This document shows positions 16,383 through 24,130 of a DNA stretch of 64,000 bases, piece after piece; position 1 is the first letter of the stretch; each line of letters opens with the position of its first letter. This stretch comes from Victivallales bacterium (GTDB lineage: Bacteria; Verrucomicrobiota; Lentisphaeria; Oligosphaerales; Oligosphaeraceae): contig JAFZWH010000162.1 in assembly GCA_017617415.1 (NCBI GenBank), positions 1 through 64,000 on the forward strand, read 5' to 3'. The translations under genes and the position numbers were made by a program. Below the pieces are notes generated by a model. It did no database searches. It saw nothing but the letters and a program-made list of their open reading frames with translations, and was not told the DNA's origin.

Positions 16383-19229
16383 TTATTTCTCGAAGTCGCG
16401 GGTACAATCGGCTGAGACGTAGGGGGCAGCGTAAACATTATTGCTCCACGGTTCACAGCCGAAGGCACCCAGGTTCTCGGCCTTCACCCAGCCGTTCTGA
16501 CCATTCTTCGAGGCCTGGGTGCCCTCGCCGGAGAGAATCAGCGTGCCGTCCGAGAGCGCCAGCGCGAAGAGCGCACCGCAGGGTCCACCGGCATTTATGC
16601 CCTTGACCACCAGCTCGTTCTCGCCTTCGTGCAAGTACTTGAGGACATCCAAGGTCCAGGCGCATTGCCAGAGTTCCTGACGCATCACTTCGTGCCCATT
16701 GATGGTGCAGGTGAAATAGTCGTCCACCGCAACGGCGAGAAAGGCGCTCTTTAATTTTGACAAGTTCTTTATTTTAAAGCAGTTGCGTAAATATGCAACA
16801 CTTTCGTCCTCCTGGTTCTCTCCGGGATACCAGACCCAGCTGGCCTTCGTGTAAGCCGAAGGCAAATCGACCTTCTCGGTCAGCCGATGCGTCGCCGGGC
16901 GTTTCAACGGCGGTGCGATGGTCTTGGCGGCATCGCGATAGATGTGGATACCATAGGGACCGAACTCCTCGGTAAAGGAGCCATTCTCCGTGAGCACATT
17001 TCGTCCCTCGCTGACCGCCCGCAGTTTCGCCGGAAGTTTTCCCGTGAGCGTGGCGGTGACGGGTTCGGGGGACTCGTTGAGGACAATCCACAAATCATCG
17101 CCCTCGGCGGTGCGCTTCTGGAAGACAAGGATGGACTCCGCATCGCAGGTGACTTCGCCCTCGATGGTATCGCCCACCAGGTAGCGCGAAAGCGCCTCGA
17201 CCTCGTGGAGATTCGCCGCCAGGTCCGCGACAAACGGGTGGTCCGTCGGCACCGTGTAGGTTCCCCAGTACATCAGACCGGTCGCGCCGTGGGAAATCGC
17301 CTCGTAGATCATGAAGCGCGTCTCCTCGCGAGTCGGGTAGATGGGTTCCTTGCCGTGGAGGGCACCCCAGGCAAAGCCCTGGAGGGTCATCCACAGCGGC
17401 TTGCGACCGCGCACGACTTCGTCGCAGATGTCGGTATATTTTCCCACGGAGGTCATCGTCTTGTCCACCAGGTCGGAATGTGAGTTCGGGCTGGGAATCG
17501 GATAGATGTCCACGCCATAGGTATCGCAGACATTCGCGTAGGAGCGCAGGTCCTCGACCTTGCCACGCGGGGCCTCATTCAAGAAGACGGGGTGGTAGGG
17601 ATCCAGCAGGCTCATCGCTTCGTAGAGGCGCTGATACGGCGCCACCGGACGCCCGCCCCAGGCGGGCTCGTCGGTGGAGAACCACGCGATGGTGGACGGG
17701 TGGTTCATCGCCTCAATGATTTTGCCGGTCGGCTTCTCCAGCCACGCGGCCTGCTCCTCCGGCGAACGCTCTTTCTGCGCATCGGCGGGCACCTGCACCA
17801 TCGCCAGCAGACCGAAATCCGCCAGTTTGTCAATCTGCGTGTAATTGCACATCACCATATTGAAGCCCATCCTGGACATCATTTCTGCGGCCTCGGTGAC
17901 CGTGTTTCCTTTGCCAAGATAATTCCAGCTGCCAATCGGAAAGAAGGGCTCGCCATCCACATACATCACTCGCTTGGCATCGAAGGTGACCACATGCGCG
18001 TCCTCCGCCAATTGCGGTGCGGGCACCACGCGGAAGACCTTCTCAGCGGAAGCGATTGTCTTGCCGTCCGCATCCAAAGCCACAGCTTCGATGGGATATT
18101 CGCCAACCTTCGCGGGCACCGCGAACTCGAAGGGAACCTCCGCTCCGCCAGGCAGTGAAACCGTTTTGCCATTGAAGGAGATTTTCACCGTGGCGGCGGG
18201 GATGCTCAGGAATGCCGCGCCGGAAAGCGTCCCCGGCGTGCCGACCACCGTCGCGTCGTGGTAGCCCCACGGGCAGGACAGCGCAAGTTCCACTGGCAGG
18301 ACAGGCGAGGTCGTGGGCGTCAGCATGATGTTGTCGAAAAAGACCGTCCCCGGAGCCTTGAGTTCGCCGACGATGGTCACTTCCATATCGTGGTCGGACA
18401 TGAAGGTCAGGGACTTGTGCTGCCAACTGGAGAACGAGTCCTGCCAGATCTCGTTGCCGGGCACCAGCTGGTCGCCCTCGTAGGCGGCCACGCGGAACCA
18501 CGTCGCGCCTTGGATGTCCTGGAACTGGCGGTCGGTGCCGCCTTTCACGTCGTATTCGAGTTTGTAGAGTTGTCCGGCTTTCACCTGAACTCCCGCCTGG
18601 GCAACCCGCGCGGTCGCGGAGGTGCCATTGAGCTTTACGAGGTTACCGTGCGCCTTGTCGCCCGATTCCTCGACCACGGCGTTCTCCAGCGTCCAGCACT
18701 TCTCGCCTGCGTTGAACGAGCCATTCTGCAACTTGCCGGGCGTGACCTCCAGCACGGGCGCGGTAAACTCCACCTTCGAGCCCTTCTTCGCGCGGAAGAC
18801 CGCGTAGGGCTTGCTCCCCTGGTCGGGCATGACTCCTGTCACCACGACTTCCTGCCAGTCGCCATTGCAGGTGAAGTCCTTCAGCATGCACCAGTAGGAG
18901 GGGGAGCTACGCTCCACATAAATGCATCCCTGGGCGCCGGCCGCGCCGCGCACCTTCGCCGTGAAACGGTACTCCACGCCGGCCTCCATCGAGATGCCGT
19001 ATTGCACCACATTCGCGTTGCCGTCCTCACGTGAAATCACAATGCCTTTCGTGCCATCTTCATACGCGACGACCTCAAACGCCACGCCGGACTGCGGTTC
19101 CCACGCGGACGGCCAGGCGCCGTTGGACGCCTGCTCCGCCAACGATGCATTCCGCAGCAGATTCTCTGCCAGAACGCCAAAACACACGAAAAAGGCAAAA
19201 AAAAGCAAAGAAAGTCGTTTGGTCATCAT
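16383..19229 (-). CDS. Secreted GH2/GH5-like barrel protein with CBM-like N- and C-terminal domains
   Basis: 948 residues. AAGGAG precedes ATGATG, so the start is at or 3 nt after 19229. Signal peptide MMTKRLSLLFFAFFVCFGVLA. Two jelly-roll-like modules cover about 22-170 and 170-310. The barrel begins VMYVDGEPFFPIGSWNYLGK near residue 425 and has AMNHPSTIAWFSTDEPAWGG, where the Glu of DEP is the likely acid/base, then VCDTYGVDIYPIPSP and SHGATGLMYWGTYTVPTDHP. The last 150 residues (ASWVWYPGE ... DYFTCTINGHEVMRQELW) look like the N-terminal jelly roll of rhamnosidases/GH2. The architecture matches the protein at 45810-47828, which lacks the C-terminal module. Substrate unknown. It converges with the rhamnosidase, 6 bp from its stop. 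Confidence 0.75.
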   Translation of the reverse strand: MMTKRLSLLFFAFFVCFGVLAENLLRNASLAEQASNGAWPSAWEPQSGVAFEVVAYEDGTKGIVISREDGNANVVQYGISMEAGVEYRFTAKVRGAAGAQGCIYVERSSPSYWCMLKDFTCNGDWQEVVVTGVMPDQGSKPYAVFRAKKGSKVEFTAPVLEVTPGKLQNGSFNAGEKCWTLENAVVEESGDKAHGNLVKLNGTSATARVAQAGVQVKAGQLYKLEYDVKGGTDRQFQDIQGATWFRVAAYEGDQLVPGNEIWQDSFSSWQHKSLTFMSDHDMEVTIVGELKAPGTVFFDNIMLTPTTSPVLPVELALSCPWGYHDATVVGTPGTLSGAAFLSIPAATVKISFNGKTVSLPGGAEVPFEFAVPAKVGEYPIEAVALDADGKTIASAEKVFRVVPAPQLAEDAHVVTFDAKRVMYVDGEPFFPIGSWNYLGKGNTVTEAAEMMSRMGFNMVMCNYTQIDKLADFGLLAMVQVPADAQKERSPEEQAAWLEKPTGKIIEAMNHPSTIAWFSTDEPAWGGRPVAPYQRLYEAMSLLDPYHPVFLNEAPRGKVEDLRSYANVCDTYGVDIYPIPSPNSHSDLVDKTMTSVGKYTDICDEVVRGRKPLWMTLQGFAWGALHGKEPIYPTREETRFMIYEAISHGATGLMYWGTYTVPTDHPFVADLAANLHEVEALSRYLVGDTIEGEVTCDAESILVFQKRTAEGDDLWIVLNESPEPVTATLTGKLPAKLRAVSEGRNVLTENGSFTEEFGPYGIHIYRDAAKTIAPPLKRPATHRLTEKVDLPSAYTKASWVWYPGENQEDESVAYLRNCFKIKNLSKLKSAFLAVAVDDYFTCTINGHEVMRQELWQCAWTLDVLKYLHEGENELVVKGINAGGPCGALFALALSDGTLILSGEGTQASKNGQNGWVKAENLGAFGCEPWSNNVYAAPYVSADCTRDFEK

Positions 19230-19449
19230 CTTCTCCTTGTAAGTTCAGGAAATCTGGAAATACGAAACGATAATACTATACCGTTTGTTCGCGGGAACGT
19301 TCTCAAATCCGCAACATTTCCACAGAAAACCGCTCCAGGGGAAAGTGCAATACCATCGACCTCCCTGGACTTTGATGGCAAGGGCGTAAATTTCGTGCGG
19401 AAGAACTCTCACCAGTGGCAATTCACTTCTCCAGAGCAAGGGCACGTCA
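19230..19449. other. Gap between RHS gene and secreted GH, 220 bp
   Basis: Contains a minus-strand GTG-initiated frame of 66 codons (19245-19445) starting 4 bp after the RHS stop. It resembles no family I know and has no Shine-Dalgarno sequence. I do not call it a gene. Confidence 0.3.
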
Positions 19450-22400
19450 CTACTTGCGACAATTCAACCAGATTCCGTATTCCGGAAGGCAGTAGTCGCC
19501 ATCGCAGTAGAGCAGACCTGTCTCCGCGTCAAAGACGCTCTGCCCGGCGCGGAGCAGATTGACCGCAAACGACGGCGAAAGCATCTCGCCGTGCGGGTCG
19601 TCGAAATTCTCCGTGAGGTGTCCAGCAGCATCCACCTTGGCCACAAGATCACCGCAGCGCCCCGTAACGCAGAACTCCTCTCCGTTGCGAAGCAGCAGTC
19701 CGCCAGGCCATGTTGGATGCCAGAGATAGGTCGCCATTGGAACGCTACCCTCAAGCACATCGTACTCGGCGAGTGGCAGGTCCCCGTCATAGACCAGAAC
19801 GCGATGGCTCACCAGCGTGTTTTGCGCAAAGACCTTCTTGGAAAAACGCCGACCTTCGTAATCATAGCCGAACTCCAGCCGAAGACCATCCTTTTCAGCG
19901 GAAGTCAGCTGATTTTCGGCATTCCAAGTGTAGTTCCAGCCCCGCCAGGCAAGTAGATTTCCGTCTTCATCGTAAGCAAGGGTTTCGGTGCCGATGGGGG
20001 ACTCCATTGTAATGCATTGATTCGTGGCATTGACAAGATAGCGCACCGTCTGCTCCGGCGAGCCTGCCTGGAACGAGATGCGGTTGTCCGCATCGTCATA
20101 GGAGTAGCGGTAATCGCCTCCCGGTGCGAGGTCGCCAGTCGCATCGAGACGTTCTTCGGCAACGAGCCGCCCCCGACGGTCATAGGCGAGACGCCGGGCG
20201 GTCCCGTCCGGAAACTCCATTTTCACGCATTGACTGGCAAGGTCATAGGCATAACGGATTTCCCGCTGGCTGTCGCCGACCGAATAACGCAAGGTGAGAG
20301 CATTGGGCCATTGCTCACGCGAAATGCCCGTTTCGGCAAGCAGTTTGCCCTCACGCCACCACTGCGTGTCGATAGAGAGCTCTTTGTCCAACAGGCGAAA
20401 CTCATCCATACCGGTACGCACTGCGCCAACCCGGCCATTCTTATCATAAATGACACTAAAGGAATACTCCGGCTGTTCCCCTTTCGCCAATGTCACGCCA
20501 CACCGCCTGCCGAATTCGTCATAGGCATACAGAAGGACAAAGCCGGGCAGTTGTGGCAGTGTCTCGAAGACGCAGTTGTCGTGCTCGTCATAGCGGAAGA
20601 GGTGCGTGCCGGCGGCATCTTCAACCTGAACCAGCCGTCCGCCTTGGTCGTATTGCCAAGACACGCCCGGCGTCTGGTCGGAATAGCCGGTCGCGATGTG
20701 TTGGCAAGCCGCATCGTAAGTGAGGGACTTCACGATGCCGCGCGCGGTGGTGCAGGTGGTCAGCAATCCGTCCTCATCGTACTGGTAGTCCAGATGGGTT
20801 CCGTCCGCATAGGTGCATCGCAGGCAATGTCCAAATGCATCGTAGTCCTGCCGAGTAGTATCGCCTTCGGCGGCCTCGTTTCGCCATGTGGTTCTGGCGA
20901 TGCGACGACCATGATGGTCGTACTGGTATGCGACCTTGCGTGTGTCACCAAACTCCAGCACCAGATTGCCGTTATCATCGTATTGGTAGTGGTGTTCCCG
21001 GCCAGCCGGGTCGCGTTCAACGGTCATCCGGTTGTTCGCATCATATTCGTACCGAGTCGTGCGAGTCTCTTCCCCACGCTGGCTGATGACGGCTTTCGTA
21101 ACTCCATTCTCGTCACGGACATAACGCATCCGGAAAGACCGTCCGTCGCTCACTTCGGAAAGACGGTTGAACTCATCGTATTTGTATTTTATATGACTTC
21201 CGTCCGCCGTGAGTTGCAATTGCAACAAGCCATTCCACCATTCGGTCTCACTCATCGTGCCATCGCCATGAAAACTCCGCATGGTGCGCGTGACACCCTG
21301 CTGAGTGATTTCTTCGTGCGTAACCACCTCTCCCAGACGATTCAAGCTGTGGAAACTGCCGTCTTGCGCAGTATCCGACTGCGTGGTAAGCTGTGCCACG
21401 CCGTCCATGAATCGCCAGGAGAGACTGCGATGCACTACCCGCCCATCCGAAGTCTTCAAATAGACATCGTTGCTGGCGTGAACCAAGTCTGGTCCGTCGA
21501 AGTCAATGACGCCGTTCTGATTCATGTCGGTGGCGACAATGGCTCCGTACTGCGGGTGGTCGTACGCATAGAGCGTCACGCGACCAGCCGGAGAGACGAC
21601 CTTGATCAGCCGCCCGAAGGAGTCGTATTCGCGGCTTTCGCAACCGCCATCCGATTTTCTTATGCGGACTACCCGTCCAAGAAAATCCCTGGTCGTCTCC
21701 TCCCATTTTTCCGGCACGTCTTCTCCGACGGACCAGCTGATGCGGGTGGTCTGAGAACCATCCTCTTCGACGGAGTAGTGGTATTCGACCGTCTCATCGC
21801 CTGTGCCGGAACGTCGGGCGACACTTCTGTCCCGGTTGAATTCCACCCATTCGGAGGAACCGTCGGGCAGCACTGTGGTTTCGCGCCGCCGACCATCTGG
21901 CAACAGCTGTCGAGTGGTCTCGGTACGCCGTCCGTCTGGTGTGACCTCTGCCGTCTGCTTGCCTGACTCGTCATACTCGTAGGAAGTCACCAATCTGCCC
22001 CCCTCCCGTCCGATGACGGTTTCGCGGATGAGATTCCCCTCCTGGTCGTAGTCATTTGCAGTAGTCACCATCGCGGACTTCGATTCGACAACGCGGTCAT
22101 TCGGGTCGAGAACCATTGAGACCTCGCGGTCCGACCACTCGGTTCGCTGCCCAGTGCCGTCCGCTCCATAACTGGTTATCCGACGGCGGCCATCGCTGTG
22201 TGTCGCGGAGAGTTCGCGGCCATAAAGATCATACTCATAGTTCGCCGAGGAAATCTCTAGCCCACTGGCCACATCAAACACCTTTCGGTCAAGCACTTGC
22301 CCGTTGGAGGCGCACAGCTCCACCGTGCGCTGCCCCGAGACGAATTCGGGCTCCTCGTCCGGTTCGGTGGGGCGGGCCAGGCGTCCGGACCGCGTCACGA

Positions 22401-23940
22401 CGGTGAATTTTCCGTCCGCTTCCTCGGTAATCGACCGATAGTACCCATGGCCGTCCGCAGAGACTCTGGCCATGGCGCTATCGCTGTCATCCAAAAGATA
22501 GAAAGCGCGTGGCCACTGGTCGTCAAAACGCTCCCAGGAGTGGAGGTTACGCGGGTCTTTCATATCCGCGCCAGGTGCCCAGGCCTGGATTTGATGAACC
22601 TCCTTGCCGTTGCCTTTGCCAAGCTCGCCTTCCCACTTGCGTGCGACTTCAATGCCCGCAATACGTTTGATAATGCATGTCCAGCCCGGCGGACACCGTG
22701 GGTCCTGCGCATTGCCAAAAATGACTTCCTCCACCCGGCACTGGTCGTCTGGCGCATTGGGGGGAGCATTCAGCCAGGGCTCGATGGTAGTCTGGATGGT
22801 ACCTGTGTGGTTCAGGCGCCACCAACTTCCATCCTCCCAGACCAACTCTTTTGCCGTACCGTAGTTGTGGCCGTCGCGCTCCCTATCATCATAGTAGTAG
22901 TGGGTGCGCAAAACACGGACGGGGGAAAGGCCAATGCGTTCCTGGACAACCTCCACCCCCCAGGGATACAGCCGACAGAGATTCTCGCTGTAGAAGACCG
23001 TCTTGCCATCCTCGTCATCGACCCTTCGCCAGAAACGCCGGTCGCCCACACGCTCCAACGGCCCCCCGAACGCATCCTTTTCCTCGGAGTCCTTTTCCAC
23101 TGGCGTGTAACCAGTGTAATCCACATGACGCTTCCCGTCTTTCCAACTCCAGCGACGCCATCCGGCATTCTCTCCCTCGTGATATTCCAACTCGGTAACC
23201 TCTGGATCCATTCCTTCGGCCAGCCGAACAACCTCCACTCGGTTGAAATGTTCCGGCTCCGGGGAGATATCATGGATACGCCAAGTCACGAAGGGCTTGC
23301 CTGTGAAATCGCCCAACGGTTCCGAGGGATTCTTTTCCTGTCCCCTGTTGTAGAAGCGGATTTCATAGCCTCGCTCGATATCTACGATATCCGCCACGCT
23401 GGTACTGGTGACCACGCGACGGGGCACCAACCGGGAACGTTCCGACCACGGAATGCTCGCCGTGCCATCCAGCTGCACAAATTTCCGTTTCGTTGGTTCC
23501 CAGCATACCAGCGCACCGTCAAAATCTTCATAATAGGAACGCACCGTCTCTTCCGCGTTCCCCAGCAGCTCCATCTCGAACTCCAACCCTGAACGCTGAA
23601 CCAGCTTCGGATCTGGACCATAGTACTCGAACTTGAGCTCCCCGCCTGGCCAGCCAAATTCATCGGTGCCTACATTGCAGTGGAATGCCGCCGGTTGACT
23701 GGCGAAATTCTCCGGCCAGGACGCCGCTTCCTTCATGAACGGATTATAATAGCTCGTGACGTGCTGGTTTTGAGGTGGCGGGCTAGAATAGCTCGTGGTG
23801 GGCTGGTTTTGAGGTGGCGGGCTTTCCGAACGCTTCTTCTCTGGCTTGCAGGAGAAGAAAAGAAAAAGCACTCCAGAAAGAAGTATCAGGAGAACAAAAA
23901 AAGTGCGAGTCATGCGGAGCGGAAGGGAATTCTGGCTCAT
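19450..23940 (-). CDS. RHS/YD-repeat lipoprotein
   Basis: 1496 residues. AAGGAG lies 7 nt before the ATG. A lipoprotein signal is seen: hydrophobic FFVLLILLSGVLFLFFSC with Cys-31 as the lipidation site, then a Pro/Gln repeat (SSPPPQNQ twice). From about residue 570 on there are many YD repeats (YEYDLYGRELSATHSDGRRR, YQYDEDGLLTTCTTARGIVK and others), the beta-cage shell of RHS proteins. The C-terminus is a weak RHS core end (DAETGLLYCDGDYCLPEYGI) and the protein stops six residues later, so no polymorphic toxin tip is present. It is probably exposed on the outer membrane or in the periplasm; the role is unknown. No VgrG, PAAR or immunity gene is nearby. Residues 70-560 are not recognised. Confidence 0.88.
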   Translation of the reverse strand: MSQNSLPLRMTRTFFVLLILLSGVLFLFFSCKPEKKRSESPPPQNQPTTSYSSPPPQNQHVTSYYNPFMKEAASWPENFASQPAAFHCNVGTDEFGWPGGELKFEYYGPDPKLVQRSGLEFEMELLGNAEETVRSYYEDFDGALVCWEPTKRKFVQLDGTASIPWSERSRLVPRRVVTSTSVADIVDIERGYEIRFYNRGQEKNPSEPLGDFTGKPFVTWRIHDISPEPEHFNRVEVVRLAEGMDPEVTELEYHEGENAGWRRWSWKDGKRHVDYTGYTPVEKDSEEKDAFGGPLERVGDRRFWRRVDDEDGKTVFYSENLCRLYPWGVEVVQERIGLSPVRVLRTHYYYDDRERDGHNYGTAKELVWEDGSWWRLNHTGTIQTTIEPWLNAPPNAPDDQCRVEEVIFGNAQDPRCPPGWTCIIKRIAGIEVARKWEGELGKGNGKEVHQIQAWAPGADMKDPRNLHSWERFDDQWPRAFYLLDDSDSAMARVSADGHGYYRSITEEADGKFTVVTRSGRLARPTEPDEEPEFVSGQRTVELCASNGQVLDRKVFDVASGLEISSANYEYDLYGRELSATHSDGRRRITSYGADGTGQRTEWSDREVSMVLDPNDRVVESKSAMVTTANDYDQEGNLIRETVIGREGGRLVTSYEYDESGKQTAEVTPDGRRTETTRQLLPDGRRRETTVLPDGSSEWVEFNRDRSVARRSGTGDETVEYHYSVEEDGSQTTRISWSVGEDVPEKWEETTRDFLGRVVRIRKSDGGCESREYDSFGRLIKVVSPAGRVTLYAYDHPQYGAIVATDMNQNGVIDFDGPDLVHASNDVYLKTSDGRVVHRSLSWRFMDGVAQLTTQSDTAQDGSFHSLNRLGEVVTHEEITQQGVTRTMRSFHGDGTMSETEWWNGLLQLQLTADGSHIKYKYDEFNRLSEVSDGRSFRMRYVRDENGVTKAVISQRGEETRTTRYEYDANNRMTVERDPAGREHHYQYDDNGNLVLEFGDTRKVAYQYDHHGRRIARTTWRNEAAEGDTTRQDYDAFGHCLRCTYADGTHLDYQYDEDGLLTTCTTARGIVKSLTYDAACQHIATGYSDQTPGVSWQYDQGGRLVQVEDAAGTHLFRYDEHDNCVFETLPQLPGFVLLYAYDEFGRRCGVTLAKGEQPEYSFSVIYDKNGRVGAVRTGMDEFRLLDKELSIDTQWWREGKLLAETGISREQWPNALTLRYSVGDSQREIRYAYDLASQCVKMEFPDGTARRLAYDRRGRLVAEERLDATGDLAPGGDYRYSYDDADNRISFQAGSPEQTVRYLVNATNQCITMESPIGTETLAYDEDGNLLAWRGWNYTWNAENQLTSAEKDGLRLEFGYDYEGRRFSKKVFAQNTLVSHRVLVYDGDLPLAEYDVLEGSVPMATYLWHPTWPGGLLLRNGEEFCVTGRCGDLVAKVDAAGHLTENFDDPHGEMLSPSFAVNLLRAGQSVFDAETGLLYCDGDYCLPEYGIWLNCRK

Positions 23941-24130
23941 TGTTCACTCCTTAATGCACCCAGGGGCCTGCACAAGCCTGCACCATGTCCACTGCACATG
24001 CCTTGCCCGCAAATGCACATTTACTTGATATGTGGGATGTTAAAACAATCGGAAAATTAAATTTTGGGTTAATATAGTCGTTTATAACGCATCTGTCCAG
24101 TACGATTTGGAATTTTCAAAACACGCTGGC

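What the first reader, a model, noticed from the sequence alone, without database searches (positions are those of the whole stretch)
19450..23940. RHS-type lipoprotein with no toxin tip
It has a lipobox, many YD repeats and a degenerate core end (DAETGLLYCDGDYCLPEYGI), then stops after six residues. Polymorphic RHS toxins continue with a variable domain. No VgrG, PAAR or immunity gene is near. It may be a lipid-anchored structural or adhesive protein.
Basis: partly seen in the sequence, partly recalled or inferred. Interest (0 to 1): 0.5.

Follow-up and report, generated by a model that had tools for sequence, protein, structure and literature searches.

The report
Toxin-less lipid-anchored RHS shell protein
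A rumen bacterium carries a large protein shaped like the hollow cage that normally holds a bacterial toxin, but the toxin and its release blade are gone and selection has kept the empty cage, apparently tethered to the cell envelope.

Summary
Window 19450-23940 (-) encodes a 1496-aa YD-repeat protein with a lipobox. It stops at the GRW-SRDP position of the RHS core end, so it lacks both DPxG motifs of the autoprotease and any toxin tip. AlphaFold2 gives an RHS cocoon (pLDDT 81.7; VIA Z 30.5 to an Rhs core). It is the only RHS gene in the assembled genome, and VipB, PAAR and Phage_GPD were not found.

It is not a recent truncation. The syntenic orthologue in a second species ends at the same residue. 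The C-terminal third has background divergence (dS 0.64-0.77; flanking genes 0.52-0.67) and dN/dS about 0.15. No tip remnant follows. A homologue in another genus is also tip-less. A toxin-tipped relative with an orphan-tip array points to toxin ancestry.

Best reading: a domesticated, toxin-free, lipid-anchored RHS cage, probably a surface recognition or scaffold protein; that function is inferred, not shown. Unexpected: the N-terminal two-thirds was recently exchanged between the two species. A third congener lacks the gene at this site, so it is accessory. New variant of a known kind.

The parts
19450..23940 (-). Toxin-less RHS/YD-repeat lipoprotein, 1496 aa; TAG stop at 19450-19452 followed at once by TGA
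23848..23940 (-). Signal peptide and lipobox (LFFS|C31); acylated Cys predicted at codon 31, followed by Lys
   Evidence: LspA present in genome; acylation itself not tested
22261..23709 (-). N-terminal family domain (residues 78-560), shared at about 35% with G003 and G005 and found in 22 of 197 genomes of the class
   Evidence: AlphaFold2 model of this part poor (pLDDT 45.7)
19621..22380 (-). YD-repeat beta-cocoon (shell), residues about 521-1440
19453..19530 (-). Degenerate, cut core end DAETGLLYCDGDYCLPEYGIWLNCRK: partial C-terminal plug without DPxG motifs, autoprotease or toxin
   Evidence: last residue aligned to Rhs1 residue 1317
20800..24060 (.). Recently exchanged tract (nt identity mostly 0.93-1.00 with the second species, against mostly 0.72-0.92 outside)
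19230..19449 (-). Downstream intergenic stretch with no toxin or immunity remnant in three frames; leads into the glycoside-hydrolase-like gene 16383-19229

Best explanation
The gene encodes a Sec-exported, lipid-anchored, empty RHS cocoon. It descends from a polymorphic RHS toxin that lost its aspartyl-autoprotease motifs and toxin tip before two present-day species of this victivallalean genus separated, and it has been kept by selection since. It most likely sits on the cell envelope, anchored by Cys31, and works by binding through the outer wall of the closed beta-cage (surface recognition, adhesion or envelope scaffold) rather than by delivering a cargo. Shown: predicted fold, absence of tip and protease motifs, conserved stop, purifying selection, a tract of low divergence. 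Inferred: acylation, outer-membrane surface location, adhesive or scaffold function, and closure of the cage by disulphides.
For: Predicted shell matches solved Rhs cores (Z 30.5, 3.0 A over 795 aa to 8qja_A; also Tse5, TLP and teneurins). Stop at the first DPxG position; 54 of 58 stop-terminated core ends have 76-314 aa beyond it. Orthologue in G001 with the same stop and the same flanking genes (S41 protease, FabK, EamA upstream; GH-like downstream), C-third dS 0.64-0.77 and dN/dS 0.15-0.16, like the flanking secreted GH-like gene (dS 0.67, dN/dS 0.14). All 13 cysteines of the C-third kept between the species, where amino-acid identity is roughly 80%. G005 homologue also has a lipobox and no tip, and groups with this pair (support 91/91 and 96/95). 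No other RHS fragment in the own assembly and no tip remnant downstream. LspA present.
Against: No direct evidence of surface location or binding. LolA was not found in the genome, so outer-membrane sorting is unproven. G002, close to G000 at the flanking genes, lacks the gene between the same neighbours, so it is accessory. The N-terminal domain model is unusable. The toxin-less proteins have long branches, so their grouping may be long-branch attraction. The G003 toxin-bearing relative also has an ambiguous LLAC motif, so a lipid anchor may not be special to the toxin-less forms.
Confidence: 0.55

Rival explanations
1. A truncated, decaying toxin allele: the tip was deleted and the remaining core is drifting.
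For: The relative G003 has a tip. The core end is degenerate (GIW for GRW, Cys for Tyr). The lineage has a long branch. G002 lacks the gene. In G053 an RHS gene cut right after its core end by a transposase-like insertion shows that truncation does happen.
Against: The same stop occurs in two species at flank-level dS with dN/dS about 0.15; 1496 codons are open; 24 of the last 26 residues are identical in both species; no displaced tip lies downstream, unlike the broken G053 gene, whose tip still lies beyond the insertion.
Confidence: 0.15
2. A cage that works in trans: it encloses a separately encoded cargo, or takes up a tip by recombination from elsewhere.
For: The cocoon fold is kept. The N two-thirds was recently exchanged by recombination. 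G001 holds another, tip-type RHS fragment at a contig end.
Against: No other RHS sequence found in the own genome or in the G005 assembly. The G001 fragment is only about 40-44% identical, far from what homologous exchange would need (inference). The DPxG cleavage motifs needed for release are absent.
Confidence: 0.12
3. A periplasmic or surface decoy or immunity-type factor that blocks related RHS toxins by mimicking their shell.
For: Toxin-bearing relatives exist in the same genus. Shell-shell contact is possible: dimerisation of RhsP and RhsA is mentioned in a passage of PMC13018210.
Against: Shell identity to the toxin-bearing relative is only about 38%. No positive evidence.
Confidence: 0.05

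Closest known systems
Rhs polymorphic toxins (e.g. Photorhabdus Rhs1, Tse5, RhsA, RhsP, Tse15)
   Same: YD repeats and beta-cocoon fold; start of the C-terminal plug
   Different: No DPxG motifs, no autoprotease, no toxin tip, no immunity gene seen, no VipB/PAAR/Phage_GPD in the assembly; Sec/lipobox N-terminus
Bacterial teneurin-like proteins (TLP) and metazoan teneurins
   Same: YD shell; Gram-negative TLPs are reported as predicted SPII lipoproteins (passages of PMC13018210); teneurins are RHS shells turned into adhesion receptors
   Different: TLPs and teneurins keep a C-terminal domain, and 96% of TLPs a TIP insertion; here nothing follows the core end, and the N-terminal domain had no family match above cut-off
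Victivallalean RHS locus of G003 (same genus) with an orphan-tip array
   Same: Same N-terminal family domain (35%) and shell (38%)
   Different: G003 has the full core end, a 167-aa tip, a small membrane protein next to it and a row of orphan tips, one with a Tle1-like lipase domain
Displaced and dissociated rhs tips of enterobacteria (Jackson et al. 2009, PMC2935791)
   Same: Core and tip are separable evolutionary units
   Different: In the passages read, a new tip displaces the old one, which stays downstream; here no tip is attached or downstream

Membership tests
RHS/YD-repeat shell proteins | YD repeats | tested here: met
   PF05593 E=1.2e-44, TIGR01643 E=2.4e-38
RHS/YD-repeat shell proteins | Beta-cocoon fold | tested here: met
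   AlphaFold2 model of residues 310-1496, pLDDT 81.7, pTM 0.74; Z 30.5 / 3.0 A / 795 aa to 8qja_A
Polymorphic Rhs toxins | Core end closed by a PxxxxDPxGL motif with autoprotease Asp residues | tested here: not met
   Protein stops at the first DP position; no Asp motif
Polymorphic Rhs toxins | Variable C-terminal toxin domain | tested here: not met
   2 residues beyond the core-end profile; no remnant in three downstream frames
Polymorphic Rhs toxins | Linked immunity gene | tested here: inconclusive
   Next downstream gene is a 948-aa GH-like protein; the 66-aa ORF between is not conserved. Unknown immunity families cannot be excluded.
Polymorphic Rhs toxins | T6SS delivery parts (VgrG, PAAR, sheath) | tested here: not met
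   PF05954, PF05488, PF05943: no match in the own assembly, 91% complete
Bacterial lipoprotein | Signal peptide with lipobox | tested here: met
   FFSC31 by a PROSITE-type rule written from memory
Bacterial lipoprotein | Processing and sorting genes in the genome | tested here: inconclusive
   LspA present; LolA not found
Bacterial lipoprotein | Acylation and membrane location | not testable with these tools
   Needs labelling or fractionation
Teneurin / teneurin-like protein | Teneurin N-terminal modules (FN-plug, propeller, TIP) | tested here: inconclusive
   No Pfam hit outside the repeats at the family cut-off; N-domain model too poor for a fold search
Teneurin / teneurin-like protein | C-terminal domain after the shell | tested here: not met
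   Protein ends at the core end

The most novel reading that the evidence does not exclude
A domesticated RHS cage: a polymorphic toxin became a permanently empty, perhaps disulphide-closed, lipid-anchored surface protein with a selected non-toxic role, an independent bacterial parallel to how teneurins arose from RHS toxins.
Probability: 0.3. Interest if true: 0.65.

Novelty: new variant of a known kind. Interest (0 to 1): 0.42.

Why it matters
RHS shells are studied as toxin containers. A toxin-free shell kept by selection across bacterial species would show that the cage has a use of its own. It would give a bacterial system for testing the step, toxin container to surface receptor, that is proposed for teneurins.

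Tried and rejected
Truncated or pseudogene allele: rejected on the divergence pattern. Assembly break: rejected, the gene is inside a 79.9-kb contig and the orthologue inside a 16.7-kb contig. Frameshifted or read-through tip: no conserved frame downstream in G000 or G001. Displaced tips elsewhere in the own genome: none found. T6SS effector: VipB, PAAR and Phage_GPD not found. Phage-borne relatives: 21 candidate stretches in viral contigs, none confirmed. Plasmids: 1201 records match, all under 60% identity and none covering 80% of the query; the 15 listed rows cover 61-69%, the shell only. PADLOC: no family. PHROGs: one hit to a family of unknown function. N-domain fold: AlphaFold2 model with pLDDT 45.7, not searched. 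Strict link between lipid anchor and tip loss: not claimed, because G003 has an ambiguous LLAC motif. Chimeric assembly as the cause of the low-divergence tract: not excluded, but it needs two false joins, and the tract is not identical (dS about 0.065). Weak OspA-like matches to model residues about 130-273 (Z about 6) were not pursued. The genome-contig scan gave 4 loci: the orthologue and three remote RHS genes.

Limits: loci were fetched because they match this protein, so the 58 core ends are not a random sample. The core-end profile was trained on 22 core ends that include the short ones. Rows running off a locus end, and matches not reaching the profile's end, were dropped. One EamA comparison used wrong coordinates and is dropped.

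Full report
Observation. The open frame at 19450-23940 (-) is 1496 aa with an ATG start. The N-terminus MSQNSLPLRMTRTFFVLLILLSGVLFLFFSC fits a lipoprotein signal. By a PROSITE-type rule it was the only match among 37 window ORFs of at least 150 aa, and LspA is present in the genome, though LolA was not found. Pfam RHS_repeat (E=1.2e-44) and TIGR01643 (E=2.4e-38) cover the middle and C-terminal part. The last 26 residues align with the RHS core end, and the stop falls where other family members have the DP of the first DPxG motif. In the assembled genome (3.2 Mb, 176 contigs, 91% complete) this is the only RHS gene: all 14 RHS_repeat matches lie in it. VipB, PAAR and Phage_GPD gave no match.

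Fold. AlphaFold2 on residues 310-1496 with 15 sequences gave pLDDT 81.7 and pTM 0.74, nearly all beta, with the last 50 or so residues less certain (block means 47-78). Foldseek and VIA-align place it with Rhs cores (8qja_A Z 30.5, 3.0 A, 795 aa), Tse5, RhsP, a bacterial teneurin-like protein and teneurins. Its last residue is aligned to residue 1317 of Photorhabdus Rhs1. In passages of PMC8636562 the Rhs1 C-terminal plug spans 1263-1357, with catalytic Asp1338 in the second of two DPLGL motifs. So about half the plug is present and the protease is missing. The N-terminal domain could not be modelled (pLDDT 45.7).

Is it a broken toxin? Among 58 distinct stop-terminated ORFs with a core end in all loci held, 54 have 76-314 aa after it and 4 have under 76: this gene (2), its G001 orthologue (1), the G005 homologue (12) and a G053 gene (12). 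The G053 case is a true breakage: transposase-like ORFs interrupt it, and a tip-like ORF starting at the RHS hallmark lies beyond the second one. By contrast no frame downstream of the window gene or of its G001 orthologue carries a tip. The loci were chosen by similarity, so these counts describe relatives, not all RHS genes.

Selection. G001 is another species of the genus; its contig has the same length as a public record titled Victivallales bacterium, sheep rumen (L031). The flanking genes are the same: S41 protease, FabK and EamA upstream, GH-like protein downstream, with an extra 710-aa gene between EamA and the RHS gene in G001. By NG86, the GH-like gene has dS 0.67 and dN 0.091, FabK dS 0.53, S41 dS 0.52 (an EamA comparison in the same call used wrong coordinates and is dropped). 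The C-terminal third of the RHS gene has dS 0.77 and 0.64 with dN 0.113 and 0.104, that is dN/dS about 0.15; the last 83 codons have dN 0.129 and dS 0.56, about 0.23. So the stop predates the species split and the stub is still constrained. All 13 cysteines in this third are kept. With identity of roughly 80% that is suggestive only.

Unexpected tract. Residues 1 to about 1031 have dS of only 0.065, and nucleotide identity in 150-base steps is mostly 0.93-1.00 between about 20,800 and 24,060, and mostly 0.72-0.92 outside. The simplest reading is a recent homologous exchange of the promoter region and the N-terminal two-thirds between the two species, leaving the C-terminal third with its old divergence. 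A chimeric assembly is not excluded.

Relatives and origin. With the N-terminal domain profile, 22 of 197 genomes of the class match. The closest outside the pair are G003 (same genus) and G005 (another genus of the family), each at about 35%. G003 has a full core end, a 167-aa tip, a 112-aa membrane protein and further orphan RHS tips downstream, one with a Tle1-like lipase domain. G005 has a lipobox and ends 16 residues after GR without DPxG. Trees put G005 with the window pair (91/91 on the N part plus shell, 96/95 on the C third), although G003 is the closer species. Long branches make this tentative. One loss of the tip before these genes diverged is the simplest account; two losses are possible.

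Accessory status. In G002, close to G000 at the flanking genes (GH-like protein 89% identical, EamA 86%), a small membrane protein gene and the GH-like gene adjoin with no RHS gene between. The gene is therefore gained or lost over short times, which argues against an indispensable role.

Mechanism. Shown by computation: a cocoon fold, no release protease, no tip, constrained C-terminal stub. Inferred: lipid anchoring and a role of the cage wall in recognition, adhesion or scaffolding. Precedents: teneurins are RHS shells used as adhesion receptors, and Gram-negative teneurin-like proteins are predicted SPII lipoproteins (passages of PMC13018210). YD-repeat proteins were found in the outer-membrane proteome of Akkermansia, also of the wider PVC group (one passage of PMC4960237). 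Tip displacement is described for enterobacterial rhs (abstract and passages of PMC2935791). Lipobox-bearing effectors with variable C-termini are described for Amoebophilus (passages of PMC3482391). I found no paper on a selected toxin-less RHS lipoprotein in the searches, judged from listings, abstracts' starts and the passages named; the library holds open-licence papers only.

Noticed in passing
L035:2665-3147 and L038 (G005 RHS N-terminus): An EF-hand-like protein is encoded just upstream of the G003 RHS gene (overlapping start), and a similar stretch is fused to the N-terminus of the G005 RHS protein; the EF-hand matches are below Pfam's cut-off. This suggests a calcium-linked partner of these shells; no such segment was seen at the N-terminus of the window protein.
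   Followed up: partly
window about 21490-21530 (-), residue 805 onward: DMNQNGVIDFDG, a calcium-loop-like motif inside the shell; the consensus DMDxNG is shared by the aligned RHS relatives.
   Followed up: no
window 24131 to about 24420 (-): Unlisted small two-helix membrane protein between EamA and the RHS gene; homologues of 94-96 aa sit in the same place in G002 and G003 and a similar frame in G001. The start codon in the window is unclear.
   Followed up: partly
L036:8371-10503: G001 has an extra 710-aa membrane-type protein between EamA and the RHS gene, next to the edge of the exchanged tract; no Pfam match.
   Followed up: no
L037:3265-4482: G001 also holds a tip-type RHS fragment with an intact DPLGE core end, cut off at its contig end.
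   Followed up: partly
L035:9039-16397: G003 orphan-tip array: three RHS core-plus-tip frames with possible immunity genes between them, one tip with a Tle1-like phospholipase domain.
   Followed up: partly
L113:2812-11207: A G053 RHS gene is split by two transposase-like ORFs, one in its N-terminal part and one after the core end, with the tip beyond it.
   Followed up: yes
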